A DNA stretch of 64,000 nt, from positions 119,890-183,889 of the forward strand of contig NZ_JARHTQ010000015.1 of NCBI RefSeq assembly GCF_029223525.1, written 5' to 3'. Below the pieces are notes generated by a model, which did not search any database, was not told the DNA's origin, and worked only from the letters and a program-made list of their open reading frames with translations. This document shows, piece by piece, positions 4,797 to 21,046 of this stretch (position 1 is its first letter; the number at the start of each line of letters is the position of its first letter). Made by a program: the position numbers and the translations under genes. Source of the stretch: Streptantibioticus ferralitis. Lineage in GTDB: Bacteria > Actinomycetota > Actinomycetes > Streptomycetales > Streptomycetaceae.

Positions 4797-4913
4797 GTGT
4801 CGTACTGGGGGTGGGCCTTCGTGGTCAGATCGGAGCTGTGTGCGCTGCTTTGGGTGGACCGCGGCCAGGCGGACACGGACAGGCTCGTGACCAACGCGGA
4901 GGCGCGCGCATGA
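4797..4913 (+). CDS. small ORF translationally overlapping the NB-ARC gene
   Basis: This 38-residue frame (VSYWGWAFVVRSELCALL, ending AEARA) starts with GTG after GGAGGACGAG and ends in a TGA that overlaps the next gene's ATG as ATGA. The overlap and spacing suggest translational coupling. The same frame is open upstream to 4689, so a 74-residue version starting with GTG there is possible. No family is recognised. It may be a leader or the tail of a decayed gene. Confidence 0.35.
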   Translation: MSYWGWAFVVRSELCALLWVDRGQADTDRLVTNAEARA

Positions 4914-7690
4914 GGCTCCGCCAGGGCATCACTATCGCCGTCGTCGCCGGTGGTGGCGCGCTGACGACAATGCTCGTGGGGCTCGTCACGAACGCGGTGT
5001 CCAGCCAGTCGCGTTGGCCCGGATGGCTGGGATGGATACAGCGGCACCCTTGGCTCTCGTTCGTCATGCTGGGCGTGGCGACAGTCGGGTTAACCGCGTT
5101 GCTCGCCGCGCTGTCCGAGAGCCGCGGGCCCACGCTGAGTGCTGAGCCGCCGCCTCGGCCGAAAGATGACGCGGGCCCGCCGGGTGCCGCGCTGGTGCTG
5201 CGGTCGCTGCCGCGCGACTCTGCGGCGTTCACTGATCGGTCCGCCGAGCTGGAGCGGCTGGAGGTGTCGGTGCGGGCGTCGCAGGAGAGGGGCGAGGCGC
5301 TGCCCGTTCATGTGATCGACGGGATGGCAGGGGTTGGGAAGACCAGCTTCGCGGTCCACGCCGGGCATGTGCTCTCGGAGCGGTTTCCAGATGGTCAGCT
5401 CTTTGTGAACCTCAACGGGCACACGCCGGGGCGGAGCCCGGTGCAGGCTGTCGAAGCGCTGGCCTCGCTGCTGGCGGCTGCCGGTGTGCCGACGCAGCAG
5501 ATCCCGGTCGGCGATGACGTGGACGCGGTCACGGAGGCGCGGGCCGCCATATGGCGGAGCCGGCTCGCGGACAAGAAGGCGCTGCTCATCCTCGACAACG
5601 CGGCCAGCTACCGGCAGCTGGAGCCCCTGCTTCCAGGTAGTGGTGGCTGTCTGGTGCTGGTGACCAGTCGTAAGCGTCTTGCGGCGCACGAGGAGGTAGT
5701 CCTGCCGGTGGATGCGCTGCCGCCGGACGACGCGGTCAACCTGTTCGTACGGCTCAGCGGGCGGTCTGCCGACACCCTCGACCGGGGCGTGCTGGAAGAG
5801 TTGGTGCGGCTGTGCGGATACCTGCCGCTGGGGGTGTCGCTGCTCGCGGCACGACTGCGGCACCATCCGTCCTGGAGTGCCGAGGACCTACGGGAGCGGC
5901 TGGTGGCGGCCCGGGACCGGCTGGGGGAACTGCGCGCCGGGGAGCGCGCGGTTACCGCGACGTTCGATCTGTCCTTTCGGGATCTCACGCCAGAGCGTCA
6001 ACGTTTCTTCCAGTCTCTCGGCTTCTACCCTGGTACGGACCTCGACGCGTACGTCGGGGCCGCGCTCGGCTTGGTTTCGGTGGCAGCGGCCCGTAGCCAC
6101 CTCGACGCGCTCTACGACGCCCATCTGATCGACGAACACCCAGGGAGCCGCTACCGGCTTCATGATCTCTTACGCGACTACGCCCGCGGTTTCGCCGACG
6201 AGGGAGCCAGCATGGACCACGTTCAGGCTGTCCAGCGTGTGTGCACCTACTATCTGGCTGCGCTCGCCGCCGCGAACACCCACATCGTCCGCGGCGACGC
6301 GGTCGCAGCGTCCGCGCTGGACATCGCCTTCCGGGTGGAGCCCCCGCCCATGCAGACGCGTCCTGCGGCTCTGAGTTGGCTGGAGAACGAGCGGCCCAAC
6401 ATTTTGGCCTGCATCCGGCGGGCGAACAGCCTCGCCCTGCATGACCTGGTGATCCGCCTGGCCGCGGCCATGGCTCCCTTCCTGCGGCAGGCCGGCCCCT
6501 GGGACCAGGCCGTGGGCCTGCACCGGACGGCAGCCGAGGCCGCTCGGCACACCGGCGACCGGCGGGCCCTCGCCGGCGCGCTGGCCGAACTCGGAGTCGT
6601 ACGACGCTGCATGGCCGCCTACCCCGAAGCGACCGAAGCCCTAAACGAGGCAGTGCGGCAATACGAGACGGTCGGCGACCGGCGCGGAAAGGCGGATGCC
6701 CTGAACCAGGCGGGCATTGTCTGGTACCTGACCGCGGACAACGAAGCCGCGGCCCGAGCCCAGAGCGAGGCTCTCGCCCTCTACCGGGAGCTCGGCGACC
6801 GGCTCGGCCAAGCCAACGCGCTCGCGGACCTGGGCATGGTGCGCCGGCAGACGAGCCAGTTCGACGCGGCCGTGGAGGCGCAAAGCGAAGCCCTGTTGAT
6901 CTACCGTGAGCTGAACGACCGCTATGGGGAGGCCAACTCACTGCGGGACCTTGGCGTCGTGCACTGCCTCATGGGCGAGTACGAACGAGCCGCCCGACAA
7001 CACCGCGAAGCGCTCGACATCTACCGAGAGCTCGACGACCGGCACCACCAGGCCTACGCCCTCAACGAGTTGGGCGTGGTGTGTCGGCTGAGCGGTGATC
7101 TCGCCGGTGCCCGGGACGCTCACGCCCAGGCGCTGGAGCTCTTCACCGAGTTCGGCGACCGGTTCGGGCGCGCGAACAGCATCCGTCACCTCGGGGTACT
7201 GGAGCGCGTTTCTGGGAACGCCACGGAGGCGATCCGGCTGCTGGAAGAAGCCCTGGACGCCTATCGCGATCTGGGCAGTCGCGGGGGCGAGGCCGCCTCG
7301 CTGAGCGAGCTTGGAGCGGCTCTCGGGAACATCGGGAACCGAGACGGCGCTGTGGAGGCGTTCCAACGCAGCCTGGAGATCCTGAGCGAGCTGGGTGACC
7401 GGTGCGGCGAAGCTGAGGTGTTGAACCACTGGGGATCGCTGCTGCGCACCTGCGGTGACCAGGCCGCCGCCCGCGAACGCTTCGAGCGAGCGCTGACTGT
7501 GGCCCGTGACATCCGCTGCCCGCTGGAGGAAGCACGGGCACTGGAAGGCATCGGCCGCTGCGACTGGGCGGTCGACAGGCCCGTTCAGGCCGCAGGCTCG
7601 CTGCGTCAAGCACTGGCCATATACAGGAAGTTGGGCGCGGACCCGGCGGCTGACGACATCGAGCGACTGCTGACATCGCAGCCCGGATAG
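4910..7690 (+). CDS. membrane-anchored NB-ARC (STAND) ATPase with TPR repeats
   Basis: The protein has 926 residues from ATG 4910 (GGAGG 8 bases upstream); the frame is open further left, but this start fits the ribosome binding site. Two hydrophobic segments lie at about residues 8-28 and 45-65. An NB-ARC ATPase follows, with Walker A GMAGVGKTS near 139, Walker B ALLILDNAA near 225 and the plant R-protein-like LPLGVSLLAARL motif. From about residue 535 there are eight or more 40-residue TPR units of the form ALxxYRELGDRxGxANAL. It lacks the N-terminal DNA-binding domain of AfsR/SARP regulators. STAND ATPases of this layout sense a ligand or partner and then oligomerise. The gene lies 130 bases before a peptide and an FxsB-type enzyme, and FxSxx-COOH loci commonly encode a TPR/NB-ARC protein, so a role in that system is likely but inferred. 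Confidence 0.85.
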   Translation: MRLRQGITIAVVAGGGALTTMLVGLVTNAVSSQSRWPGWLGWIQRHPWLSFVMLGVATVGLTALLAALSESRGPTLSAEPPPRPKDDAGPPGAALVLRSLPRDSAAFTDRSAELERLEVSVRASQERGEALPVHVIDGMAGVGKTSFAVHAGHVLSERFPDGQLFVNLNGHTPGRSPVQAVEALASLLAAAGVPTQQIPVGDDVDAVTEARAAIWRSRLADKKALLILDNAASYRQLEPLLPGSGGCLVLVTSRKRLAAHEEVVLPVDALPPDDAVNLFVRLSGRSADTLDRGVLEELVRLCGYLPLGVSLLAARLRHHPSWSAEDLRERLVAARDRLGELRAGERAVTATFDLSFRDLTPERQRFFQSLGFYPGTDLDAYVGAALGLVSVAAARSHLDALYDAHLIDEHPGSRYRLHDLLRDYARGFADEGASMDHVQAVQRVCTYYLAALAAANTHIVRGDAVAASALDIAFRVEPPPMQTRPAALSWLENERPNILACIRRANSLALHDLVIRLAAAMAPFLRQAGPWDQAVGLHRTAAEAARHTGDRRALAGALAELGVVRRCMAAYPEATEALNEAVRQYETVGDRRGKADALNQAGIVWYLTADNEAAARAQSEALALYRELGDRLGQANALADLGMVRRQTSQFDAAVEAQSEALLIYRELNDRYGEANSLRDLGVVHCLMGEYERAARQHREALDIYRELDDRHHQAYALNELGVVCRLSGDLAGARDAHAQALELFTEFGDRFGRANSIRHLGVLERVSGNATEAIRLLEEALDAYRDLGSRGGEAASLSELGAALGNIGNRDGAVEAFQRSLEILSELGDRCGEAEVLNHWGSLLRTCGDQAAARERFERALTVARDIRCPLEEARALEGIGRCDWAVDRPVQAAGSLRQALAIYRKLGADPAADDIERLLTSQPG

Positions 7691-7820
7691 CCAGGCATGT
7701 GACCGGTTTCGGTATGCCGCCGCGAGCGGTACGGCTGTTACGTTGCCAGCTCATCTGTCGTCTCCACCGCCGTCGCACTGTGCCGGTCTGCCACGGTGTG
7801 CCCATCACGAGGAGCGCTGA

Positions 7821-8021
7821 ATGCCGTCACCCACGTCTGCTCCCGCGCCACACGCCTCGGCTCCCGTCGGCCCCGAGCCCGCGCAGGCGGCACAAGGCAC
7901 GGCGGTCTTGGACCGTGTCGCCGCCCGTATCCGGCAGCGGCTAGCGGCCGAGCAGGCCGCGACGAACCGCGTCGGCGACGGCTCCCACGCAGCCTCGATC
8001 ATCTGGCCCTGGCCACTGTGA
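7821..8021 (+). CDS. putative RiPP precursor peptide with C-terminal WPWPL
   Basis: A 66-residue peptide starts with ATG after GAGGAG. It has a Pro/Ala-rich N-terminus, an amphipathic leader-like helix (VLDRVAARIRQRL, then AEQAATNRV) and the C-terminal core ASIIWPWPL. The radical SAM gene begins 14 bases after its stop. In FxSxx-COOH loci a peptide of this size with a short aromatic C-terminal motif precedes the FxsB maturase. Here the terminal FxSxx is replaced by IIWPWPL. Two Trp residues separated by Pro are plausible sites for a radical SAM cyclophane (Trp carbon to a nearby side chain). Assignment as substrate rests on position, size and the conspicuous C-terminus. Confidence 0.7.
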   Translation: MPSPTSAPAPHASAPVGPEPAQAAQGTAVLDRVAARIRQRLAAEQAATNRVGDGSHAASIIWPWPL

Positions 8022-8034
8022 GCGCTACCGCTCG

Positions 8035-9195
8035 ATGACACCCCGGGAAGCCACCGCACCCTTTCAGACGTTCATCCTCAAGGTCGCGAACCGCTGCAAC
8101 ATCGACTGCGACTACTGCTACGTCTTCAACTCCACGGACCAAGCCTGGCGGCACCTTCCCGCCCGGATGAGCCTGGACGTGGCCCGAGTTGCGGGTCGAC
8201 GGATTGGTGAGCACGTCACGGCTCACGGGCTGCGTACGGTGCATGTCGTGCTGCACGGTGGCGAACCGCTGCTCGCCGGTCCTCGTCACATGGCCGACGT
8301 GCTCAGCGTTGTCCGGGATGGGATACCGGCGGATACGGCGGTCCGCTTCGAGCTCCAGACCAACGGGACGCTCCTCACGACGGTGTGGCTGAATCTCTTC
8401 GAGCAGTATGAGGTGGCCGTGGGCGTCAGCCTCGACGGGCCGCCAGCCGCGAACGACCGGCATCGGCTGACTCATGCCTCGCGATCGAGCGCCGCCTCGG
8501 CCGTACGCGGCATCGAACTCCTGCGGTCCCGACCGCACCTGTTCGCCGGACTGCTCGCCGTCGTGGACCTGGCCAACGACCCGGTGGAGGTCCACGACTA
8601 CCTGGCATCGTTCGATCCCCCAGTAATCGACTTCAACCTCCCGCACGGAACGCACGACCAGCCGCCCCACCGCAACGACCCGACCGTGCCCGAATACGGG
8701 CTGTGGATGAGCCGTGTCTACGACGCCTGGCTCGCCCGGCCCGACCACCGGCACAGCGTCCGGATGCTGGAAGACATCGTCGCGCTCACCTCCGGCGTAC
8801 ACGGCTCAGTGGAAACCCTCGGCCTCGCCCCGCCGACCAGCGTCGTAATCGAGTCCGACGGCACGATCGAAGGCGTGGACACCCTGCGATCCGTCGAGGA
8901 AGGTGCCTCCTGGCTAGGGCTCAACCTCGCCCACCACACCTTCGACGGTGCTCTTCGCCATCCGAAGCTTCAGCACCGGGAATACGGCATTACCGCGCTG
9001 GCCGACAAATGCCAGAGCTGCCCGCTGGTGGACGTGTGCGGCGGCGGCTACCTCCCGCATCGCTTCAGCGCCACCCGCGGCTACCGGAATCCATCCGTCT
9101 ACTGCGCAGACCTCGAGCACCTCATACGCCACGTCCACAACTCCCTACAGCAGCAGGGCTGGGACCCACACGCACCAACCGCCCCCTCCCCTTAG
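8035..9195 (+). CDS. radical SAM/SPASM peptide maturase, FxsB family
   Basis: The protein has 386 residues. The radical SAM motif CNIDCDYC (CxxxCxxC) lies near residue 22, in the context FQTFILKVANRC, which is typical of FxsB and three-residue cyclophane-forming enzymes. GGEPLL and the SAM-binding strands follow. The C-terminal SPASM-like region has CQSCPLVDVCGGGYLPHR and, later, NPSVYC, which bind an auxiliary Fe-S cluster. These enzymes use SAM and reducing equivalents to crosslink aromatic side chains in a precursor peptide. No ribosome binding site precedes ATG 8035, so translation is probably coupled to the peptide 14 bases upstream. The likely substrate is that peptide's WPWPL end. Confidence 0.85.
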   Translation: MTPREATAPFQTFILKVANRCNIDCDYCYVFNSTDQAWRHLPARMSLDVARVAGRRIGEHVTAHGLRTVHVVLHGGEPLLAGPRHMADVLSVVRDGIPADTAVRFELQTNGTLLTTVWLNLFEQYEVAVGVSLDGPPAANDRHRLTHASRSSAASAVRGIELLRSRPHLFAGLLAVVDLANDPVEVHDYLASFDPPVIDFNLPHGTHDQPPHRNDPTVPEYGLWMSRVYDAWLARPDHRHSVRMLEDIVALTSGVHGSVETLGLAPPTSVVIESDGTIEGVDTLRSVEEGASWLGLNLAHHTFDGALRHPKLQHREYGITALADKCQSCPLVDVCGGGYLPHRFSATRGYRNPSVYCADLEHLIRHVHNSLQQQGWDPHAPTAPSP

Positions 9196-9270
9196 CCACG
9201 CCGCACCCCCACAGGGGATCACGCGTTGGACCAAGCGAGTGCAGCGACTGAAGAACAACAGGAGACGCCG

Positions 9271-9744
9271 ATGACCGTGACGATCCGCCCCGCCGACAAG
9301 CGGGACATCCTCGCCGTGGCCGAACTGATCGAGGAGATCGAACGGTTCTACGGGGCGACCGAAATCCAGCCGCTCGAAGAACGCCGGTCCCAAGTGGAGG
9401 AAGCCCTCTTCGGATCACCGCCGCTCGCATCCGCCCTCCTAGTCGAAGACGACGCCGGCGACCTCGTCGGCCTCGCCGCCTACTCCTTCCTCTGGCCAGC
9501 AGCAGGCTCCTCCCACTCCCTCTTCCTCAAAGAGCTCTACGTCCGCGACACCCTCCGCCGACAAGGCATCGGCGCCCAACTCATGAACGAACTCCGCGCC
9601 CTCGCCGCCGCACGCCCCGGCTGCAGCCGTGTCGAGTGGATGACAGACCACGACAACCCAGACGCACGGTCCTTCTACCAGTCGCTCGGATTCGCCGAGT
9701 TCGACGGAAAGGTCGTCTATCGCATCGACACCAATACAGTGTGA
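9271..9744 (+). CDS. GNAT-family N-acetyltransferase
   Basis: The protein has 157 residues from ATG 9271, with AGGAG six bases upstream. The GNAT fold shows in the acetyl-CoA binding motif RRQGIGAQLM and the C-terminal NPDARSFYQSLGF. It transfers an acetyl group from acetyl-CoA to an amine. It lies 75 bases after the radical SAM gene on the same strand and may modify the mature peptide or give self-protection. Substrate and operon membership are inferences. Confidence 0.85.
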   Translation: MTVTIRPADKRDILAVAELIEEIERFYGATEIQPLEERRSQVEEALFGSPPLASALLVEDDAGDLVGLAAYSFLWPAAGSSHSLFLKELYVRDTLRRQGIGAQLMNELRALAAARPGCSRVEWMTDHDNPDARSFYQSLGFAEFDGKVVYRIDTNTV

Positions 9745-10357: not shown

Positions 10358-11104
10358 TCAGGCCGACTTATGCGCTACCAGTACCAGTCTCGGCGACCTG
10401 TCCGTCAAGGGACTTTGGTCCCAGTCCCCCCACATGCCGGTCATTTCGAGCCCTACGTAGCGGATGATGTGGCGCAGTTCGGCGGGCCATAGGTAGCGCA
10501 AGTCGGCGGGGAGGATCCGCGTGCCGCTACCGGTCAACAAGAGGTGCTTGAGTCGGATGACCTGGCCAGTAGCGTCATGGCGACCGGCGATGACGGTCAC
10601 CTCCTCGTCGTTGAGTTCCTGGGGCTGCCAGGAGCGACCGAATGAGTAGCCGAGGGTGGCTTGAGCGGGATTTACCACCTCCACCACCAGTACCCCGTCG
10701 GGTTCTAGGTGGCGGGCACAGCGGTCGAACGTAGCTATTTGTTCTTCTTCGCTGAGAACGAAGTTGATGGTGTTGAAGACGGAGAAGATACCGGTGAACC
10801 TCTTGACGCCCAGGTCGAAGTCCGTCATCGAGGCCAGATGTTTTCCAGTGATTTTACTTCTGGTGTCCTTGGATGCGAGGATATCCAGCATCTCTTTGCT
10901 GGCGTCGAGGCCGGCAATGCGGTACCCCGCATCAGCTAGGGGAAAAGCTACACGCCCGGTCCCGACCCCGACCTCTAAGATTTCACCGTCCTTGGGCAAC
11001 ACCCGCACAAGGAAGCCCAACATGGGGTCGTCCGGGGGTAGAGCCGGGTAGGTCTGGTCGTAGACGTCCGCCCATGCCCGGCCCATCTGGTCGTAAACGC
11101 TCAA
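10358..11104 (-). CDS. class I SAM-dependent methyltransferase of a RiPP-like locus
   Basis: The protein has 248 residues. Motif I is ILEVGVGTGRVAFPL near residue 45, with the acidic residue after the second strand in AGLDASKEML. The chosen start is TTG 11104, which overlaps the radical SAM stop (TTGA) and has GGGAG upstream; the frame is open further but runs antisense to the radical SAM gene's own frame. The tight coupling implies a shared product. It may methylate the matured peptide (a Cys thiol, backbone amide or C-terminal carboxylate) or a small intermediate. Substrate cannot be read from the sequence. Confidence 0.8.
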   Translation of the reverse strand: MSVYDQMGRAWADVYDQTYPALPPDDPMLGFLVRVLPKDGEILEVGVGTGRVAFPLADAGYRIAGLDASKEMLDILASKDTRSKITGKHLASMTDFDLGVKRFTGIFSVFNTINFVLSEEEQIATFDRCARHLEPDGVLVVEVVNPAQATLGYSFGRSWQPQELNDEEVTVIAGRHDATGQVIRLKHLLLTGSGTRILPADLRYLWPAELRHIIRYVGLEMTGMWGDWDQSPLTDRSPRLVLVAHKSA

Positions 11105-12441
11105 AGGACACTCCCGGTTATCTCGGTCAGCCCGTTGATCTGCGCGGACAGGCGCATCCGGGCCTGATGGTTGAGCTTGTAGCTGGGACACGGCACGTTT
11201 CCGTCCACCCATGCCTTGGGGCACGCTCCACCACACACCGGCAGGAAGACGCAACCGGAGCACGGCACGTCACCGCGGCTGACGCGGTTGTGCCAGTCAT
11301 CGAACGCCCCGGCGGGACGTAAGTTGAGGATGGGCAACTCGGTGAGGTGCCCGACCGCCGACGCGACCTCCTTCGGTACCAGCGGCTGCTCCGTGCAGGA
11401 GAACACCTGTCCGTCGCTGGAGATCACTTCGGCGGATCTGGTGACCGCCGAGCACACAGGTCCGGCTGGAGCCGTGGGGAGCAGTTCGATGTTCAACCCC
11501 AAGTCCAGGAGCCGTTCCAGCAGCATGGTCTCCAGCTCGGCGTAGTGCTGCCTGCTGACCTGGAGCTGGGAGATGTCGTTGCCCCATGGGTGGATGGGTT
11601 TGAGGCTGAACCGTACTCTGGGGTGGGCCAGGCCACGGTGGGCGAGGTCTTCGAAGAACCCGTCCAGGTAGTCGCAGTTGTTGGCGTCGATGTTTGTGCG
11701 GATGCTGAACGACAAGCCGCCCAGGCTCCCGTCACCTAACGCCCTGGCGATCGTTTCCACGATCTTGTCGTATGAGCCACCGCCACCCTTCAGCGGTCGG
11801 TGCGCGTCATGCACGGGCGCAGGTCCATCGATCGTGATCTCACAGTGCTGGACGCGGCAATGACTGTGCAGCGTCCTCAATTTCCTTATGGTGAGCAGGG
11901 ATCCGTTGGTGACCATGCGTGCCGAGTAGTGTTTGCCGTGTCGCTCGGCCGAGGCGGCGAACGCCGTTGACAGGGCGCGGATGACGGCGAAGCCCATCAT
12001 GGGTTCGGCCCCGAACCAGTTCACCAGCACCTCGCATACGCCGGGGTCGGCCATGGCGGCATCGATCCTGGCGGCTATGGCGCCGCGGTGGTGCGGTGCG
12101 AGGATTCCTTTGGTGTGCTCCTGACCGCAGTAGGCGCAGCCCATGTTGCAGTACGAGGTCGGCAGCAGCGTGAACTTCCGTAACGTCTTCGCGCTGCTCG
12201 CTGCCTGTTGCCTTGCAGGAATGTCCTCACTGGTAGTGGTGAGGACACCCGCGTCGACGAGGTAGGCGCGCTCTGTTTCGGTCAGCCGGTCGGGAGCGTG
12301 GTCCGCTAAGGCGTTGCCGACTGCAGCGGGTAAGGCGTGAAGTGTGGCTGTGGTGGTCTGGTACAACAGCCTTACCGGGCCTTCGATACCGTGGTAAACC
12401 TGGTCACTGAGGATCGCGTACTTGCTCACTCGCTCGCTCAA
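11101..12441 (-). CDS. radical SAM/SPASM peptide maturase
   Basis: The protein has 446 residues from TTG 12441, with AAGGAGG 8 bases upstream; a longer in-frame start at 12507 has no such site. An N-terminal segment (KYAILSDQVYHG, LLYQTTTATLHAL) comes before the radical SAM motif CNMGCAYC near residue 98. A SPASM domain with about seven cysteines ends the protein (PCSGCVFLPVCGGACPK, then CPSY), so auxiliary Fe-S clusters are expected. It belongs with maturases that install thioether, C-C or epimer modifications in ribosomal peptides. It lies between a 22-residue peptide gene and a methyltransferase overlapping its stop. I do not recognise the exact subfamily. Confidence 0.85.
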   Translation of the reverse strand: MSERVSKYAILSDQVYHGIEGPVRLLYQTTTATLHALPAAVGNALADHAPDRLTETERAYLVDAGVLTTTSEDIPARQQAASSAKTLRKFTLLPTSYCNMGCAYCGQEHTKGILAPHHRGAIAARIDAAMADPGVCEVLVNWFGAEPMMGFAVIRALSTAFAASAERHGKHYSARMVTNGSLLTIRKLRTLHSHCRVQHCEITIDGPAPVHDAHRPLKGGGGSYDKIVETIARALGDGSLGGLSFSIRTNIDANNCDYLDGFFEDLAHRGLAHPRVRFSLKPIHPWGNDISQLQVSRQHYAELETMLLERLLDLGLNIELLPTAPAGPVCSAVTRSAEVISSDGQVFSCTEQPLVPKEVASAVGHLTELPILNLRPAGAFDDWHNRVSRGDVPCSGCVFLPVCGGACPKAWVDGNVPCPSYKLNHQARMRLSAQINGLTEITGSVL

Positions 12442-12463
12442 CGCGCGGCCCTCCTTCGGTGCG

Positions 12464-12500
12464 GTGCACGGCCGCCTGTTAGGAGCGGGCGGCCGTGCAC
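12464..12500 (-). promoter_or_regulatory. strong stem-loop between precursor peptide and maturase
   Basis: Perfect 13-bp arms (GTGCACGGCCGCC / GGCGGCCGTGCAC) enclose 11 bases. It begins 20 bases after the peptide stop and ends just before the maturase ribosome binding site. No T-run follows on the minus strand. Placement fits an attenuator or an mRNA-stabilising hairpin that gives many peptide transcripts per maturase transcript, as is common in RiPP operons. Confidence 0.7.
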
Positions 12501-12520
12501 TCTTCAACTAGGTGCGAGCC

Positions 12521-12589
12521 TCAGCAGGAGCCGTTGACGATCACGTCAGCCTCAGCCTGCTTGGTCGTGGTAGTAGTCAGCGTCGACAT
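12521..12589 (-). CDS. 22-residue putative RiPP precursor with C-terminal Cys
   Basis: The ATG at 12589 has an excellent ribosome binding site, AAAGGAGG, 7 bases upstream. The peptide begins MSTLTTTTTKQ, continues with AEAD and ends VIVNGSC followed by TGA. It is the first frame of the operon read by the TTGACA promoter, and the stem-loop and maturase follow. The lone Cys at the very C-terminus and the Asn-Gly-Ser before it are the natural targets for modification. The peptide is too short for most gene callers. Its role as substrate is inferred from position, the ribosome binding site and the neighbouring radical SAM/SPASM enzyme. Confidence 0.75.
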   Translation of the reverse strand: MSTLTTTTTKQAEADVIVNGSC

Positions 12590-12975
12590 GGTTCGACCTC
12601 CTTTCGCATATGTGTAGTGGCTTAGGTACGAGGCAGGTTGTGCTCGAAGCCTCGACCCGAGAACCGATGGTATGGGTCACTCAAGCAAGGGTGTCAAGTA
12701 GTCGCTTGGAAGTTTTAAGCGATCACTTGGAGGTCTAACTATCCAGATCTGCAAGGGATTTGATTCCCTGCCAATCCCTCACCTGCGCTAACACCCTTCC
12801 ACCCAGGCCCGACGAGGCTTCAGAGGCCGGCACTTGACGAGGGTGCACCGACGAACGCAGCGGCGCCGCTTGGGAGTTGTAACTCCGGCAAGATCACCTA
12901 TTGTGGCGTGGGCCATTGCGGCCTAGCTCCGTTGTGCTCCATCATTGCCTCCAAGCGCATGCTTGGAGGACAGTT
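12590..12975. promoter_or_regulatory. divergent control region of the 22-residue peptide operon and its regulator
   Basis: For the leftward operon a consensus -35 TTGACA lies at 12697-12692 (minus strand), with candidate -10 hexamers CATACC (12674-12669) or TACCAT (12672-12667) at 17-19 base spacing. Imperfect palindromes overlap or flank the -35: TCAAGTAGTCGCTTGGA at 12694-12710 and AAGCGATCACTTGG at 12717-12730. Both share the CTTGGA/TCCAAG half-site with the perfect palindrome before the ArsR-like gene. The stretch 12740-12900 holds nothing else that I recognise. Confidence 0.6.
12948..12969. promoter_or_regulatory. perfect palindrome, probable operator of the ArsR-like regulator
   Basis: CCTCCAAGC-GCAT-GCTTGGAGG has 9-bp arms. 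Its right arm contains the GGAGG ribosome binding site of the regulator starting at 12976. A repressor bound here could block its own transcription, and the RNA hairpin could hide the ribosome binding site. The same half-site recurs at the promoter of the peptide operon. Confidence 0.6.
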
Positions 12976-13506
12976 GTGGCCACCGACCGCACCACGCTCA
13001 GGGCACTCTCCGACCCGTTGCGGCTGCGCCTGCTCAACCTGCTCGGCACACAGACCCTGTCCGCAGCCGAAGCGGCCCGCGCGATCGGCATCACCCAAGC
13101 ACTCGCCAGCTACCACCTGCGAAAGCTCCTCGACGCCGGGCTCGTCGTGGTACAGCACACCCGCAGCAACCGGGGCGCCACCGAGAAGGTCTACGAGCTG
13201 GCTTCCGCCCAGGAACGCCCCTTGGTGTTCGCCGGCGATGACCTCGCGCTGTTCCTGGAAGCCGTCGCCACCGAAATCCGCCGCCGCGCCGCCTCCGCCG
13301 ACACAGACGCGCCGTCGTTGGTATCCGACACCGAACTGTGGGCAACCGAAGAAGCCATCAACCAGGCTCGCACCGCACTGGCCGGAGCCACTCGCGCGCT
13401 CGTCGACGGCAAACGCCCAGCTGGCACGCCGGGCACATTGCCAGTGAGCGCCACCACCGTCTTCTTCCAGCTCAAACCTGAAGCATCTGATGACGTCGGC
13501 GCTTAG
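12976..13506 (+). CDS. ArsR-like winged-helix transcriptional regulator
   Basis: The protein has 176 residues from GTG 12976, chosen for GGAGGA five bases upstream rather than the longer open frame from 12901. The HTH_20-type winged helix is clear: TTLRALSDPLRLRLLNLL, the recognition helix region ALASYHLRKLLDAGLV and the wing VYELAS. No metal-binding Cys pair is seen, so a non-metal signal is likely. The C-terminal half may bind the inducer. Its stop overlaps the MFS gene by 17 bases. Shared palindromes suggest that it represses itself, the exporter and the divergent peptide operon. Confidence 0.8.
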   Translation: MATDRTTLRALSDPLRLRLLNLLGTQTLSAAEAARAIGITQALASYHLRKLLDAGLVVVQHTRSNRGATEKVYELASAQERPLVFAGDDLALFLEAVATEIRRRAASADTDAPSLVSDTELWATEEAINQARTALAGATRALVDGKRPAGTPGTLPVSATTVFFQLKPEASDDVGA

Positions 13507-14758
13507 GCACAAGCCGTTCGCCCTGTTATGGGGCGGCCAGGCCTTCAGCTCCCTGGGTGACTGCCTGTACGCCGTCGCCATCGCGACACTGGTCCTCCAG
13601 CGTGGCGCTTCGCCGACCGCTCTCGCGGTGATCATGGCGGCACGTGCCATCGGCACAACTGCCACAGCCGCCCTTGGAGGTGTCCTCGCCGACCGCATCA
13701 CACCAGGGCGCGCCATGCTCGCCGCCGACATCGCCCGCGCCGCGGTGCTGGCCGTCTTAGCGCTGGCAGGGTCCGTCATGCCGGTGGCCGCCATCGCGGC
13801 TCTGACGTTCGCCACCGGGGTGGGCGAAGCAGTTTTCCTGCCCGCCTACATGGCCCTGATCCCCCTGGTCGCCCCGCCTGCGGCTTTGCGATCGGCCAAC
13901 GCATGGACTTCGATCGCCCAAAGAACGGCACAGGTAGCGGGCCCCGTGACCGCAGGCGGCATCGTGGCGGCTTGGCGACCACAAACCGCCCTCGGTGTCG
14001 ATGCGTTCACCTTCACCGCGAGTATCGCCACCCTCGCCGTCCTGACCCGCCGCTTGCCAGCAGCGCCGTCCGACCACACGGGAAGGATCACTTGCGCGGA
14101 GGTCTTGGCAGGGCTGACTGAAATGCGGTCCCGTCCATGGCTGGCTGCAACGGTCGCCGGTTCCGCCAGCCATATCCTGTTCGGCCTCGGCCCCCTCCTT
14201 CTGCTGCTGCCCTGGCTGGCCAAAAGCCACGCCACCTCCACCTTGCCCTACTCCATGCTCCTGGCCGCGTTCGGTGCTGGTTCCATCCTGGGTACGTCCT
14301 TGTCCACCCGGGTCAGAAGGACACACCGGGGAGTCGTGGGCCAAGCCGGATTGGCGACCACCGCGGTCGCGATGCTCACTCTCGGGACCTCGGCACCGCT
14401 CCCGTGCGCCCTGTCCGCGATGGCGGTGTGCGGTGCGGGATACTCCGCTTTCGGGGTCTTGTGGACCACCGCGGTCCAAGAGCAGGTTCCCGCCCACCTT
14501 CTCGGGCGCGTGGCTGCAGTTGACACCTCGGTCGGGCTCGGCTGTATGCCGCTCGGCTACCTCCTCGCTGGTACGGCGACCAACGTCCTCGGCCAACAAG
14601 GCACTCTCCTCGCCCTAGCCCCGGTGACAGCAACATGTGCCCTACTTCCGCTGCTTGCCAAAGGAACAGTCGCCTACCACACCGCGCAGCCCACGTCATC
14701 GATCAGCCGAGGCGACACGTCCGCCCCCTCACGCGCGACTCCGCCCTCCGCCTGGTGA
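13490..14758 (+). CDS. MFS transporter
   Basis: The protein has 422 residues and about 12 hydrophobic segments. The cytoplasmic-loop motif appears as GGVLADRITPGR near residue 64 and the second-half equivalent near LGRVAAVDTSVG. It starts inside the regulator gene, so the two are translationally coupled. It is likely the exporter for the product of the radical SAM locus, with the regulator controlling export. The C-terminal 30 residues are hydrophilic and Ser/Thr-rich. Confidence 0.8.
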   Translation: MTSALRHKPFALLWGGQAFSSLGDCLYAVAIATLVLQRGASPTALAVIMAARAIGTTATAALGGVLADRITPGRAMLAADIARAAVLAVLALAGSVMPVAAIAALTFATGVGEAVFLPAYMALIPLVAPPAALRSANAWTSIAQRTAQVAGPVTAGGIVAAWRPQTALGVDAFTFTASIATLAVLTRRLPAAPSDHTGRITCAEVLAGLTEMRSRPWLAATVAGSASHILFGLGPLLLLLPWLAKSHATSTLPYSMLLAAFGAGSILGTSLSTRVRRTHRGVVGQAGLATTAVAMLTLGTSAPLPCALSAMAVCGAGYSAFGVLWTTAVQEQVPAHLLGRVAAVDTSVGLGCMPLGYLLAGTATNVLGQQGTLLALAPVTATCALLPLLAKGTVAYHTAQPTSSISRGDTSAPSRATPPSAW

Positions 14759-14825: not shown

Positions 14826-17800
14826 TCACTCACCGGGTTCGGCGGGTAGGAGGGAGCCCAACTCGGGCGACCCGTAGGTCAGGAAGACGAGGTCGCTATC
14901 GCTGCTGGTGTCCCAGATGTCGCGGTCGAATGTCACGGGGACTGAGGCCGTGGACAGCTGACCCAAGTAGCACTCGACTGACGACACGCCGTCGGAACGT
15001 CCGAAGGACACGCGGGCGTGGTCACGTGGAAGGACAAGGTGGTAGATACCGGGGCGCGCATCGTCTGGGGATAAGCAGCGGCCTGAGAGGAGGTTGTTCG
15101 TGAGCTTGATGGCAAGGCCTGACGGAGTGACACCTCCGACCAGGTCGGGCGGGGTCTGGATGGTGAGGTCGTCGTCGGAAGTGCCGAGGTCGCCGGTGTT
15201 GACAGGCTGGTTGTTGATGTCGTCGATTTGGGTTCGGATGCCGGCGATCTCGCTGGCGATGACTTCGTCGCTGAGGTTTGCGGCGAGGACGAGGTCTTCG
15301 ATGACCTTCTCGACGGTGCCGAGGACGGGGGCGGCGCCGCCGAGGATGTTGGTGAAGTCATCGTAGTCCTCCTTGATGCCCTTGTAGACCTGCTCCTCGA
15401 CGGTGTCTTCGTAGAAATAGTTGCTGATCTGGAGGCGCTCGTAGGCAGCGCCGATGCGGTCGATACGGCCGATGCGCTGCTCGACACGCATCAGGTTCCA
15501 AGGCATGTCGTAGTTGATGAGGCGGCCCGACGTCTGCAGGTTGAGGCCCTCGCTCATCGAGTCGGTGCCGACCAAGATCTCGATTTCGCCGTTGCGGAAT
15601 CGGGTCTTGATCTCGGCCTTGGTGACCGGGTTCCACTTCCCTGCCACGGGATCGTACATCTCTCCGCCGCGGCCGGAGTAGCAGCCAAGTCTGTAGTAGC
15701 CGGCGGCCAAGAGGCGCACGCGGACGTAGTCCATGGTGTCGGCATACTGAGTGAAGACCACTGCGGAGTCGTACGTTTTGAAGGACTCGGCCAGGTCCTC
15801 GACGAGCTTCTTGGCCTTGGTGTCCTCGCCGGTAATATCGCCGAGGTCGTTGAGGAAGGAGCGGAGCTCGCCGATCTCCTTCTTGAGGCGGTCGGCGCGG
15901 ACGTCGAAGGCCTCGGGGTCGAAGAGGGAGTTCTCCAAGTCGACGCCGTCGTCGTCGGTGAGGAGATCAGCGAGGCTCTTGCCCTGCTCAAGTACCTCGA
16001 GGCGGCGTTGCAGGGACTGCTTGATCGCTTCGAAGGAGGAGGTCAGTCGGCGCCGGTAGACGGTCATGATGAAACCGAGGGCCTTGGTGGCCTTGTCAGA
16101 CTTGTAGGCGTTGTAGTGGCGTCGGATGTATTCCTCGATGCGGTCATACAGCTTGCGCTCGTTCGGCGCCAGGGGGATGAACTCATCGGTGACGTGCCGA
16201 TACGGGATGACGATAGAAGCCGGGATGATGCCAGCCGCCTGGTAGGCCCGCATGGTCTTGCGGGTGTTACGGAAGACCCGATCGCGTATCGGGGTGTGGC
16301 GCCGAGCCCACTTATCCATCCACTCGGAGATGGCATTGGGGAACTGTGCCCTGAGGTCAGGCGAGGGGGGATTGTCAGCCATCCCGGTCACCGTCAACGC
16401 GTCGGCCCATCCGAGTGCGTCGTTGACCTGTTGCTCCAGCTCGTAGTCGTGTTCGGCGAGCGGGTCGGAGAAATAGTCCTCCAGCATGTCGCAGATGAGT
16501 TTCCAGCCGCGCTTCTCAGGCTGATCGCCGAGGTAGGTGAAGTATTGCGTGAAGAAGAACGCCTGCTCACCCCACTTGCCCGGCAACCCGAGGAGCTCGA
16601 TGAGATCCCAGGCCTCATGGGCGTGCATCTGCATCGGGGTCGCCGAAGCGAGGTAGAGCGCACGCCACAGGTCGCGCCTCTTCATCTCCTGGAGCAGCGC
16701 GAGCAGGGAGTTGGGAGTGTCGGTCGCCTTGGAGCCGCGACGGCGAGCGTGATGGGCCTCATCGACGAGGACGACATCCCACGGTCCAGCGTCAAGAATC
16801 TGGGTACGGCGACTGCGGCGGCGAGCGAGATGGGAGGATGCGAGAACAATCGGGAAGGCCGACCACGGGTTCGCCTTCGGATTTGTCGCGATGGGCTGGT
16901 CGAACCGGTCCATGAAGCCGCCCTTGTCGTACCGGGCGACATCGAGGTTCATCTTCTCGTGGAGCTCTTCCTGCCACTGCTTCATCACCGAAGCAGGCAC
17001 CAACAACAGCGCCTTCTTCGCCCGGCCGGAGGTAAAGAGCTCACGTATCACCATGCCTGCTTCGACAGTCTTGCCGAGACCGACCTCGTCGGCGAAGAGA
17101 TAGCCGCGCGGGTACGTCGACACCACCCGGTGGATCAGCTCCGCCTGGTGCGGCAGCGGCTGAACCCACGCTGTACCCACGCCAGTCCACGCGGACGCCT
17201 TTGGCGCATCCCGGAGAGCGACCAGCTCATCCCAGGCTGCCTGGATATCGATGGCCGCATCGACAGACGGTGCCTCGTGATCGGCCTCCTCGCGCCTCGG
17301 TTGCGGCACGAGCGTGTCGAAGGGGAGCGGCGGAGCGGCGGGAGCGTGCTCTATCAGGTGTTCCCGGACGGCGGTGGGCAGGTCGATGATCGCCCACCCC
17401 TCGTCAGGGTTGGCACGCCAGTGCCGTTCGAAGGCTCGCTCCTTGGGCTCGCCATAGTCCTCCCAGGACTCGGTACGCCAGGAGCGGTAGGCGTCGAAGG
17501 TCTCATGGTTCTTCACCCATGCGGTGACCGAGGCGTTGTTGGACCCGCTGAACGCGACCCTATGGCCGTAGCGGTCCGTGAAGATGCCGTACTTGGTGTG
17601 GAAGTAGCGGCCCGACTCCTGGTGGGTGAGCAGGTGGCCGTGTTTGTCGACCGGGATGCCGACCCGGATGTGGAGCCGGTCGTTGGCGACCATCCAGGCC
17701 AGCACGCTGAGGTGCTCGCTCTGCACGATCTTCGTGCCCTCCAGGCCAGGGTCAGCCAGCAGACGTTCGGCGACCACATCGTCGAGTGGAGTACCGGAGA

Positions 17801-18140
17801 GCACCGCGTCGACGTCCTTCTTGCCGAGCTGGGCGCCGACGATAAGTCTCATCACGCCGCCACCGGCGATGAAGTACGCCGTGCCCTGCGCGGCGAACTG
17901 CAACTCGGCACCTGACCAGTACCCGACCGCGCGGTCGTAGGCAACCGCGCGTGAGAGCAGCGGCTCGTAGAACGTCTCGAACGGTGCATCGTCGGGCGAG
18001 TACATCGCCTTCAGCTTCACGCTGCGGAACGCGTCCTCGGCCGTGGCAGGGTCGTGGTCGAAGAGACCATCCTGCGCCGGTGCCGCTGGCTTGGCGGAGG
18101 CACCGGGAAACAAAGCATCGTCGTGCTCGGCCAACCTCAC
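14826..18140 (-). CDS. PLD-SNF2 type helicase of a Helicase-Methylase-ATPase (Hma-like) defence system
   Basis: The protein has 1104 residues, starting with GTG 18140 in a GTGA overlap with the methyltransferase stop. An N-terminal PLD-like domain (residues about 45-210) carries HTKYGIF and VAFSGSNN. The SF2/SNF2 core has Walker A DEVGLGKTVEAG, DEAH box VVLVDEAHHAR, SATPMQ, and the C-terminal motifs LVGTDSMSEGLNLQ and RIGRIDRIG. Such ATPases translocate on double-stranded DNA. The operon partners are a DUF1156 methyltransferase and a DUF499 ATPase, the combination described as the Hma defence system. Its probable role is restriction or remodelling of unmodified phage DNA. Confidence 0.85.
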   Translation of the reverse strand: MRLAEHDDALFPGASAKPAAPAQDGLFDHDPATAEDAFRSVKLKAMYSPDDAPFETFYEPLLSRAVAYDRAVGYWSGAELQFAAQGTAYFIAGGGVMRLIVGAQLGKKDVDAVLSGTPLDDVVAERLLADPGLEGTKIVQSEHLSVLAWMVANDRLHIRVGIPVDKHGHLLTHQESGRYFHTKYGIFTDRYGHRVAFSGSNNASVTAWVKNHETFDAYRSWRTESWEDYGEPKERAFERHWRANPDEGWAIIDLPTAVREHLIEHAPAAPPLPFDTLVPQPRREEADHEAPSVDAAIDIQAAWDELVALRDAPKASAWTGVGTAWVQPLPHQAELIHRVVSTYPRGYLFADEVGLGKTVEAGMVIRELFTSGRAKKALLLVPASVMKQWQEELHEKMNLDVARYDKGGFMDRFDQPIATNPKANPWSAFPIVLASSHLARRRSRRTQILDAGPWDVVLVDEAHHARRRGSKATDTPNSLLALLQEMKRRDLWRALYLASATPMQMHAHEAWDLIELLGLPGKWGEQAFFFTQYFTYLGDQPEKRGWKLICDMLEDYFSDPLAEHDYELEQQVNDALGWADALTVTGMADNPPSPDLRAQFPNAISEWMDKWARRHTPIRDRVFRNTRKTMRAYQAAGIIPASIVIPYRHVTDEFIPLAPNERKLYDRIEEYIRRHYNAYKSDKATKALGFIMTVYRRRLTSSFEAIKQSLQRRLEVLEQGKSLADLLTDDDGVDLENSLFDPEAFDVRADRLKKEIGELRSFLNDLGDITGEDTKAKKLVEDLAESFKTYDSAVVFTQYADTMDYVRVRLLAAGYYRLGCYSGRGGEMYDPVAGKWNPVTKAEIKTRFRNGEIEILVGTDSMSEGLNLQTSGRLINYDMPWNLMRVEQRIGRIDRIGAAYERLQISNYFYEDTVEEQVYKGIKEDYDDFTNILGGAAPVLGTVEKVIEDLVLAANLSDEVIASEIAGIRTQIDDINNQPVNTGDLGTSDDDLTIQTPPDLVGGVTPSGLAIKLTNNLLSGRCLSPDDARPGIYHLVLPRDHARVSFGRSDGVSSVECYLGQLSTASVPVTFDRDIWDTSSDSDLVFLTYGSPELGSLLPAEPGE

Positions 18141-21046
18141 TCCATTTCGAAGAGCGCGTCGGGCTTGTCCTCGACCAGCGTGGCCACGTCGGTGGCCTCC
18201 GGCAGGGTCACATCGGGGAAGTAGAGCGTGCACAGGGTGTCAAGGCGCCCGGCCTCGGGCACGACCCACTCTCCCTTGACCTTGGTGCGCGGCATCGCGT
18301 TCACCAGGCCCTGCAGGGTGGAGATGAACCCAGCGTCGTTGATGTAGCCGTGCTTGTCGAGGAATCGCTTCGCCGCCGGCATTCCATCGTGCTCGGCGAT
18401 GTACAGGGTCGTGTCGACCGCGTCGATGATGTAGTCGAACGAGGCAGCCTCGGGCCGTACGCCGGGGGCGTGGGAGTCGCCACCGCGCCGCACCCGCTCG
18501 CTCGGAATGAGCAGGATGACCTTGCCCGAGGACTTGGAGACCACTTTGGCCCCCTCGAGCTCGTCGACGTCGAGCCCGCCGACGGCGAGTGCCAAGAGGC
18601 GGGCAGTGTCGAAGGGGAACTCGCGGGCAGCGAAGGTGTCCCAGGCCAGCAGCACGAAGTCGGTTAGTGTGTCGACCTTCGCCGCCTTCCCGACCAGTCG
18701 GGAGCGGCGCAGGTCCACGATCTCCTCGCGTGCCAGGGCGAGGGCCTCCTCGGGTCGTAGCAACTTGTCGCGGCCATCCTTGTCCGGGGTCGAGGAATAG
18801 ACGGGCCAGCTCTGCGAGATCATCGAGAGCGTCGGGCCGTACGTCGACAGCATCAGGTCGACGCCCTCGATACCGGCATGCTGGAACCGGGTTGCCGCAT
18901 CGCGGGCTGCACGTCGAATATCCTGTTCGATGTCATCGAGATAGACTTTGATGTCGCCGTCTCGATCGTCGCGCTTGCGACAGACCAGCATGATTGTGGA
19001 CGCCGCGGAGTTCACATTGGCCTGGTGCAATGAAACCTCTGACTCGGTGTTGACTGGCCAGGATGTTTCGATCGTGAAGCCAGCCTGCATCAGGCCCATC
19101 CCAAGGGTGTCCCACGCCTCAGCTCGCTTGTGGGTAAACATCACCGAGAGGATGCCGTCATCGGAGAGCACACGACGCGACTCCTCGAAGATGCTGGTCA
19201 TCTTCGTCTCGTAATCGAGGTCAGCAAGTTCCTTCCGGCGCTTTCCCATCGCCGCGAAGCGCGCCGGGTTGGCCACGGCCTCGTTCTGCTTGTCGGTCAG
19301 GTCGTCGCGGAAATAGCCGGGGATGAGGCGCCCAAGGGTACGCTTCTCCCAGACGTAGAAGTAGTCGGCCAACTCGGCGTACATGACGTTGTCGTAGTAC
19401 GGCGGGTCCATGCAAATGTGGACTACTGAGCCGTCCTCAAGGTCGAGGCTCGCGGCGCTTCCCTGCAGGATGGATACTTTCCTCCTCAGCCGGTCTTCAA
19501 GGTCGCTGTCAGATGCGCCGGTCTCGTCGAGCAACCGGGCGATGCCGCCGTAGGCGTCTAGCAGTTGGTCCAGTGCCCAGGAGTAGAGCGCGGTGGCACC
19601 TTCGAACTCGGCGAACGTCCACTTGAAGGAGAAGTTGTGCTTCTCGAAGACGCTACGCATCTTCTGGCGCGATACGTCCCAGGTCGAGGCCCGGGAGTTC
19701 CAGTTGAGTGCCTTGCCCTGCATCAGGGCAAGCTGGAAGAGGGCGGCGTCCGCCGACTCTCCGAGCGCTTCCTGGACCTCAGGCACGATGCGTGCAAACT
19801 CTTCGCCGAAGGTCCCGTGTGTCAAGGCTTGGCGCGGCGTGAAGAAGTCGAGCCAGGTGTTGATGCCGTACATACGGTGACCGCGGTCATAGTTGGCCTC
19901 TACCGGGATCTCTTCGGAAGGCAAAATGTCCTTCGCCTGCCACAGCGCCTTCATCTCCTCAAGCTTCGCCTCAGCGGCGGCGATAGCGTCGAGGTCGGTC
20001 GGGGTGGGGGCGCGGAAGGTGCGTTCGCCCGAGGGCTTTCGGATGGCGACGGCGTAGAGGACCTGCTTCATCTGGCCGGCCTGGGCGGCCTGCTTAACGT
20101 AGTTGCCGTCGATGACGAGGTTGTCGTAGGGCGAGATGGCCTTGCCCCGGGCGGTGGTACCGGTGGAAGCATCGATGTTGTCGACGTCCTCGCCGAGAGC
20201 GACCTCGAAGATCGGCTCTGAGAGCTCGACGCCATCGAACTCGGTAAGCATCCGGACGGCGGCTTCTTTTCCTGCGGTCTTGCGGAGCCACTTGTCGGTC
20301 AGGAGCGGTACGAGGCGGCCGGTACGAGGGCAGGGGATGGCGTTGGCGTACAGGTAAGTTGCGACTGTCTCAGCCTTGCGGCTTGGAAAGTACTCCTTGA
20401 GGCGCTCCTCGATGCGCTTGACGAGGATGCCACCCCACTTCTTAAGTTCCGGAAGGAGGTCGAGTCCGTGGGTCGCAGGGATCTCGACGCCTGCTTTGAG
20501 CACGCTCGCGGCCACACCGTTGAGGTCGTTGGCAATAACCGGAAGCCCGAGTCGGCTGGCGGCCCACGGAATTGAACCGCCACCCGCTGTCGGGTCTGCG
20601 ATTACTGGCAGCTCGCCCCATGTGTGCGTCAGCACTGCATGGAGCAAGTCGATGTCCGCGCGCGGGATCGCGTTCCGGAAGGCTTGCTTGTAGGTGTAAG
20701 GGTTGGGGATCCGCTGGCCTGTCGCGACCGCAACGTCGTACATGCGACGGGCGATGATCGGGTCACCCCAGATGCCGATGAGGCGAAGGAGCCAGCGGTG
20801 GTAGGTGGCCTCGTCTTGGAGTTCGACGGCGTCGGGATACGCCTTTGCGAGCTCCTCGGTCCAGGCAGGCAGGACGCCGGCGAGGGCGACGGCCGCGGAG
20901 GCAACGAGGGGACGGCGGGCCCACCAGATGTGGAGGAAGGAGAGCGGTGGGAGCGCGGAGGCGGCGCCGCGTTCCCGACGGGATTCGATGCCGAGCTCAG
21001 CGACGGGGAGCCAGTCCTCGATGAGGACACGTGGTTTGGTGCTCAT
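18137..21046 (-). CDS. DUF1156-type DNA amino-methyltransferase (Hma-like system)
   Basis: The protein has 969 residues. The N-terminus IEDWLPVAELGIESRRE with LSFLHIWWARRP is the DUF1156 signature. SAM-binding motif I is seen as PTAGGGSIPWAASRLG near residue 152, and the catalytic motif DPPYYDNVMYAELADYF near 550 marks an N6-adenine or N4-cytosine enzyme. It starts 11 bases after the preceding small gene and its stop overlaps the helicase start. It most likely modifies host DNA so that the helicase-ATPase partners act only on foreign DNA, or labels targets. Recognition specificity cannot be predicted. Confidence 0.85.
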   Translation of the reverse strand: MSTKPRVLIEDWLPVAELGIESRRERGAASALPPLSFLHIWWARRPLVASAAVALAGVLPAWTEELAKAYPDAVELQDEATYHRWLLRLIGIWGDPIIARRMYDVAVATGQRIPNPYTYKQAFRNAIPRADIDLLHAVLTHTWGELPVIADPTAGGGSIPWAASRLGLPVIANDLNGVAASVLKAGVEIPATHGLDLLPELKKWGGILVKRIEERLKEYFPSRKAETVATYLYANAIPCPRTGRLVPLLTDKWLRKTAGKEAAVRMLTEFDGVELSEPIFEVALGEDVDNIDASTGTTARGKAISPYDNLVIDGNYVKQAAQAGQMKQVLYAVAIRKPSGERTFRAPTPTDLDAIAAAEAKLEEMKALWQAKDILPSEEIPVEANYDRGHRMYGINTWLDFFTPRQALTHGTFGEEFARIVPEVQEALGESADAALFQLALMQGKALNWNSRASTWDVSRQKMRSVFEKHNFSFKWTFAEFEGATALYSWALDQLLDAYGGIARLLDETGASDSDLEDRLRRKVSILQGSAASLDLEDGSVVHICMDPPYYDNVMYAELADYFYVWEKRTLGRLIPGYFRDDLTDKQNEAVANPARFAAMGKRRKELADLDYETKMTSIFEESRRVLSDDGILSVMFTHKRAEAWDTLGMGLMQAGFTIETSWPVNTESEVSLHQANVNSAASTIMLVCRKRDDRDGDIKVYLDDIEQDIRRAARDAATRFQHAGIEGVDLMLSTYGPTLSMISQSWPVYSSTPDKDGRDKLLRPEEALALAREEIVDLRRSRLVGKAAKVDTLTDFVLLAWDTFAAREFPFDTARLLALAVGGLDVDELEGAKVVSKSSGKVILLIPSERVRRGGDSHAPGVRPEAASFDYIIDAVDTTLYIAEHDGMPAAKRFLDKHGYINDAGFISTLQGLVNAMPRTKVKGEWVVPEAGRLDTLCTLYFPDVTLPEATDVATLVEDKPDALFEME

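What the first reader, a model, noticed from the sequence alone, without database searches (positions are those of the whole stretch)
10358..14758. Candidate new RiPP locus with a 22-residue precursor ending in Cys
A very short gene at 12521-12589 (MSTLTTTTTK... ending VIVNGSC) has a near-perfect ribosome binding site and its own promoter. It is followed by a hairpin, a radical SAM/SPASM maturase with its own AAGGAGG, and an overlapping methyltransferase; a repressor and an MFS exporter are divergent. I do not know a described RiPP class with a lone C-terminal Cys after NGS and this enzyme pair. Family names of the enzymes are established; the precursor role and the product are inferred.
Basis: partly seen in the sequence, partly recalled or inferred. 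Interest (0 to 1): 0.85.

Follow-up and report, generated by a model that had tools for sequence, protein, structure and literature searches.

The report
Asn-x-x-Cys ring-peptide locus with methyltransferase
A 22-residue gene ending in Asn-Gly-Ser-Cys sits beside a radical SAM enzyme, and 43 of 54 related loci carry an upstream frame with the same Asn-x-x-Cys pattern, so the enzyme is predicted to tie the last cysteine to that asparagine, giving a small ring peptide that is likely then methylated and exported.

Summary
Of 54 actinobacterial loci with a related maturase (39-48% identical), 35 have a ribosome-site-preceded frame ending in Cys just upstream, against 0 of 81 control frames. 43 of 54 hold Asn-x-x-Cys near the end of an upstream frame, against 0 of 200 reverse-strand frames. 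The window's NGSC is this motif at the very C-terminus.

The chemistry has precedent, so a wholly new class is too strong. Streptococcal NxxcB joins Cys to the beta-carbon of Asn three residues upstream. A LanD-type flavoprotein with a radical SAM enzyme makes AviCamCys (second-hand). 25 of 25 relatives with a terminal Asn-x-x-Cys have a PF02441 flavoprotein; 0 of 18 others do (one clade).

The window breaks this rule: terminal motif, no flavoprotein, and in its place an overlapping methyltransferase of the CcbJ/CypM/YunM fold.

Best reading: a C-terminal Asn-Cys thioether ring that keeps its carboxylate, on an N-methylated peptide. Precursor role: strong. Ring: likely. Methylation site: weak. 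New variant of a known kind.

The parts
12521..12589 (-). Precursor peptide gene, 22 aa, MSTLTTTTTKQAEADVIVNGSC; core Asn19-Gly-Ser-Cys22
   Evidence: N19 and C22 invariant among nine chosen short precursors; motif in 43 of 54 loci
12597..12603 (-). AAGGAGG ribosome binding site of the precursor, 7 nt spacing
   Evidence: read in the sequence
12464..12500 (-). Stem-loop (13-bp stem) between precursor and maturase; likely attenuator or mRNA stabiliser
   Evidence: each of 22 spacers folded shows a GC-rich stem-loop, z -2.0 or lower in 17
12450..12456 (-). AAGGAGG ribosome binding site of the maturase, 8 nt spacing
   Evidence: read in the sequence
11101..12441 (-). Radical SAM/SPASM maturase, 446 aa, TTG start
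   Evidence: AF2 model pLDDT 90.8; structural matches
10358..11104 (-). Class I methyltransferase, 248 aa, TTG start overlapping the maturase stop (TTGA)
   Evidence: CcbJ/YunM/CypM fold group
12976..13506 (+). ArsR-like HTH_20 regulator, likely repressor of both operons
   Evidence: PF12840 50.8 bits, cut-off 27; function inferred
12948..12969 (.). Inverted repeat CCTCCAAGC-4-GCTTGGAGG ending 6 nt before the regulator start; related copies at 12696-12712 and 12717-12733; candidate operator
   Evidence: role inferred
13490..14758 (+). MFS transporter, likely exporter
   Evidence: PF05977 and PF07690 above cut-off; MFS genes near the maturase in 28 of 54 loci plus window in one BLAST cluster

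Best explanation
This is a RiPP locus whose radical SAM/SPASM maturase is predicted to join the sulphur of the last cysteine (Cys22) to the beta-carbon of Asn19 in the likely 22-residue precursor, giving a likely C-terminal Asn-x-x-Cys thioether ring that would keep its carboxylate, and whose overlapping methyltransferase would N-methylate the peptide. Shown here: the frame and the family-wide Asn-x-x-Cys pattern upstream of related maturases, the stem-loop, the gene order, the SPASM-maturase fold, the CcbJ/CypM-like methyltransferase fold, and the lack of the flavoprotein gene that lies beside the maturase in the relatives with a terminal motif. Inferred: the bond and its position, the methylation and its site (most likely the alpha-amine freed by leader removal, as for CypM), repression by the ArsR-like protein, export by the MFS protein, and leader removal by a protease encoded elsewhere.
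Confidence: 0.58

Rival explanations
1. Same precursor and enzyme, but the bond is a sactionine: Cys22 sulphur to the alpha-carbon of Asn19 or of a neighbour.
For: NCBI models call the aroma_sacti relatives sactipeptides; Asn alpha-carbon acceptors are known in ruminococcin C and thurincin H (PMC8172795, passages).
Against: In NxxcA, with the same Asn-x-x-Cys spacing, the bond is at the beta-carbon, and AviCamCys is named as a 3-carbamoylcysteine.
Confidence: 0.15
2. Same ring, but the methyltransferase methylates the C-terminal carboxylate of Cys22, masking it where relatives would remove it by decarboxylation.
For: The methyltransferase gene takes the place that the flavoprotein gene has in relatives with a terminal motif.
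Against: Best sequence and fold matches are CcbJ, YunM and CypM, N-methyltransferases (CypM by its PDB title, the others recalled).
Confidence: 0.17
3. The locus makes an AviCamCys-type product with a flavoprotein acting from elsewhere in the genome.
For: The terminal Asn-x-x-Cys goes with a PF02441 flavoprotein in 25 of 25 relatives.
Against: The genome (99.17% complete) has two PF02441 proteins, one UbiX-type and one in a 454-aa frame, probably CoaBC; the window maturase lies outside the flavoprotein clade.
Confidence: 0.06
4. The 22-codon frame is chance and the enzyme has another substrate.
For: Tiny frames are common in any genome.
Against: Motif, position, ribosome site and stem-loop recur in relatives, with zero in the controls.
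Confidence: 0.02

Closest known systems
Streptococcal NxxC subfamily (NxxcA/NxxcB), a ranthipeptide
   Same: Asn-x-x-Cys core with the same spacing, acted on by one radical SAM/SPASM enzyme (PMC13361665, PMC8326336, passages)
   Different: The subfamilies were found linked to Rgg regulators in streptococci; here ArsR-like and MFS genes and a methyltransferase; Cys is the last residue; sequence kinship to NxxcB not tested
AviCamCys pathway (LanD flavoprotein with radical SAM enzyme; Cheng et al. 2023, not read, cited in PMC11162475)
   Same: C-terminal macrocycle through a thioether to what the name implies was Asn; relatives here with terminal Asn-x-x-Cys carry a PF02441 flavoprotein, which I infer is this type
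   Different: No flavoprotein in the window; a methyltransferase in its place; separate branch of the maturase tree
aroma_sacti / StsA-related sactipeptides (NF045560, NF045559)
   Same: Same maturase family and terminal Asn-x-x-Cys in relatives such as L007 and L017
   Different: The window precursor lacks the leader domain
TIGR04463 radical SAM/SPASM maturases
   Same: Best NCBIfam match of the window maturase, 165.5 bits
   Different: Far below the cut-off of 525
CcbJ, YunM and CypM methyltransferases
   Same: Fold and profile match over almost the whole protein
   Different: 24-35% identity in the structural alignments; CypM acts in a linaridin pathway without radical chemistry (recalled)

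Membership tests
NxxC subfamily / ranthipeptide | Asn-x-x-Cys core in the precursor | tested here: met
NxxC subfamily / ranthipeptide | S to non-alpha carbon bond (beta-carbon of Asn) | not testable with these tools
   needs product; precedent only
NxxC subfamily / ranthipeptide | maturase orthologous to NxxcB | not tested
   NxxcB sequence was not at hand; primary paper not held
NxxC subfamily / ranthipeptide | Rgg/SHP quorum-sensing neighbourhood | tested here: not met
   divergent regulator is ArsR-like HTH_20
AviCamCys system | LanD-type flavoprotein (PF02441) with the radical SAM enzyme | tested here: not met
   none in the locus; two in the genome, UbiX-type and probably CoaBC
AviCamCys system | C-terminal Cys with Asn upstream | tested here: met
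   NGSC at the C-terminus; the Asn is inferred from the name of the residue
aroma_sacti / StsA-related | leader matching NF045560 or NF045559 | tested here: not met
   no match for the 22-mer, which is short for such a test; L007-type precursor 65.9 bits
TIGR04463 maturases | score above the curated cut-off of 525 bits | tested here: not met
   165.5 bits
CcbJ/CypM methyltransferase fold group | profile and fold match over nearly the full length | tested here: met
   a shared fold does not show the substrate
CcbJ/CypM methyltransferase fold group | methylates an amine | not testable with these tools
   needs assay

The most novel reading that the evidence does not exclude
A new RiPP subclass: a radical-made C-terminal 3-carbamoyl-lanthionine ring (Asn beta-carbon to Cys sulphur, carboxylate kept) combined with linaridin-style alpha-N-methylation, one branch of a large actinobacterial Asn-x-x-Cys superfamily in which unlike leaders and interchangeable tailoring enzymes (flavoprotein, methyltransferase, none) are built around one conserved thioether-forming enzyme.
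Probability: 0.38. Interest if true: 0.68.

Novelty: new variant of a known kind. Interest (0 to 1): 0.56.

Why it matters
It links the streptococcal NxxC chemistry and AviCamCys to a broad actinobacterial enzyme family through one simple rule, Asn-x-x-Cys, that can be searched in any genome. It also gives a clean comparison: relatives with the motif at the very C-terminus carry a candidate decarboxylase, whereas this one carries a methyltransferase, so two fates of the same predicted ring can be compared. Precursors this short may fall below the length limit of common gene callers (recalled), so such loci may be missed by standard annotation.

Tried and rejected
Rejected: chance frame; aroma_sacti membership; plain AviCamCys. 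My first idea, carboxyl methylation of Cys22 in place of decarboxylation, was demoted to a rival once the fold matches came out as CcbJ/CypM/YunM.

Led nowhere: viral contigs, 65 stretches matched a pattern and none was a relative; plasmids, two records below 60% identity; whole-genome searches, window counted in each: 1 of 3 in the genus, 3 of 293 in the order, 1 of 394 in the class, 11 of 394 in the family, 1 of 396 in the phylum, at differing E limits; no methyltransferase relative beside the loci so found (flanks of 1.5 kb). Rfam none at gathering; promoter scan none. Literature: ten searches; one search combined radical SAM, RiPP, C-terminal cysteine and methyltransferase, and its 18 listed papers showed no such locus by title or abstract start. 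The library holds open-licence papers only, so absence from print is not shown. Passages only were read of PMC8172795, PMC12395415, PMC11002830, PMC9415263, PMC13361665, PMC8326336, PMC11162475 and PMC12291118.

Rows dropped before counts: of the 80 loci (L055-L076, L078-L081; 37% identity or less, non-actinobacterial by title) were not scanned for precursors; L012 starts 37 nt before the gene and was left out; L082 was added and L083 (35% identical) was not. One search used the 43 loci with a motif out of 54. One search used 21 chosen loci plus the window. One search used eight chosen short precursors plus the window. loci are held with 1.5 kb each side.

Full report
What is there. On the minus strand lie a 22-codon frame (12521-12589) with AAGGAGG 7 nt upstream, a 13-bp GC-rich stem-loop, a 446-residue radical SAM/SPASM maturase with its own AAGGAGG, and a methyltransferase whose TTG start overlaps the maturase stop. 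Divergent from them are an ArsR-like HTH_20 protein and an MFS protein. An inverted repeat, CCTCCAAGC-4-GCTTGGAGG, ends 6 nt before the regulator's GTG, and related copies lie towards the precursor, which suits autoregulation (inferred). A consensus promoter scan found nothing. The host is likely of the Streptomycetaceae: genome G162, of the window's family, holds a maturase row identical to that of Streptomyces L007.

Is the small frame real? Homologues of the maturase were taken from a scan of one genome per species plus L082. Of 54 loci, 35 upstream regions hold a ribosome-site-preceded frame of 15-110 aa ending in Cys (37 of 63 frames). Controls gave 0 of 28 frames on the reverse strand, 0 of 3 downstream and 0 of 50 in 157 far-upstream blocks. 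With looser rules, 43 of 54 have N..C within the last 12 residues of an upstream frame (45 of 199 frames), against 0 of 200 reverse-strand frames. Many loci are close Streptomyces relatives and so not independent; but the leaders are of several unlike kinds (short LTT-rich; a long domain matching NF045560; signal-peptide-like; LFLEEIT-like; kinds judged by eye), and Asn-x-x-Cys is what they share. Among nine chosen short precursors only N19 and C22 are invariant. Nearest in look are L003 (MDETLTTTTDIGEPDEHVNIAC), L005 and L014; L005 and L014 also have a divergent ArsR-like plus MFS pair, and L003 a divergent MFS with only a partial ArsR-like match. In the background, 0 of 143 comparable frames end in N..C. 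Each of 22 spacers folded shows a stem-loop between precursor and maturase; z is -2.0 or lower in 17 and weaker in five (L004, L005, L013, L017, L027).

Where the rule fails. Of the 11 loci without the motif, eight form a separate clade of the maturase tree (100/99); L040 has DGGC, L026 DGDCC at the end of a longer frame, and L041 shows nothing. Three of nine further loci also lack it.

What sets the window apart. In 25 of 25 loci where Asn-x-x-Cys ends the peptide, a PF02441 flavoprotein gene lies downstream of the maturase; in 0 of 18 other motif-bearing loci does it (Fisher 1.6e-12, not corrected for descent, and the flavoprotein loci form one clade). In nine further loci, four have the terminal motif and all four have the flavoprotein; the two with a non-terminal motif and the three without one do not, within the flanks held. 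Of the 30 flavoproteins so found, 30 keep a PxMNxxMW motif, 25 PATAN, and 18 the His pattern tried (motif meaning recalled). The window has the terminal motif but no such gene, and its genome's two PF02441 proteins are one UbiX-type and one in a 454-aa frame, probably CoaBC. In the tree the window joins P0002 (62% identical) and P0003 (97/88), outside the flavoprotein clade. In the flavoprotein's place is a methyltransferase whose model (pLDDT 92.0) and profile match CcbJ, YunM and CypM best. CypM is the cypemycin N-terminal methyltransferase by its PDB title; that the other two are N-methyltransferases is recalled. The other loci carry no relative of it; the protein search found one 97% identical metagenome protein and then 43% and less.

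Conclusion. Precursor and RiPP nature: strong. Asn19-Cys22 beta-thioether: likely, by precedent and motif. Kept carboxylate: likely. N-methylation: a fair guess. Export and repression: by gene type only. The variant, a terminal Asn-x-x-Cys ring with a methyltransferase and no decarboxylase, is what may be new.

Noticed in passing
4811-9744: A complete-looking HaaA-type cyclophane RiPP cluster lies right beside this locus: HaaT (1600.9 bits, cut-off 1125), HaaA precursor 7821-8021 ending SIIWPWPL (114.1, cut-off 55), FxsB-type radical SAM enzyme (418.8, cut-off 370) and HaaN acetyltransferase (317.9, cut-off 250).
   Followed up: partly
14826-19954: A 1135-aa PLD/SNF2-type helicase (BrxHI, PbeA, DrmD-like) and a 605-aa HmaB-like DNA methylase, perhaps an anti-phage defence system; the helicase is below the NCBIfam cut-offs.
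   Followed up: partly
L007:4971-5504: In aroma_sacti loci such as L007 a divergent LuxR-type regulator (PF00196) ends in a stretch resembling the precursor leader (DALHALREAGHPVDLL...VEGQ), as if regulator and precursor shared a domain; seen by eye.
   Followed up: no
L007:10097-11560: Many aroma_sacti loci carry a second radical SAM protein (PF04055) near the maturase.
   Followed up: no
L034, L044, L051, just upstream of the maturase: Loci of the clade without Asn-x-x-Cys have an upstream frame of about 85-100 aa without the motif, ending like ASGxWS or ASGGLAS; a different substrate or a partner protein.
   Followed up: no
L002, L004, L010, L013, L029, L031: A sister group has two-Cys cores such as NGVCGNGC, followed by an MFS gene and no flavoprotein; perhaps two rings.
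   Followed up: partly
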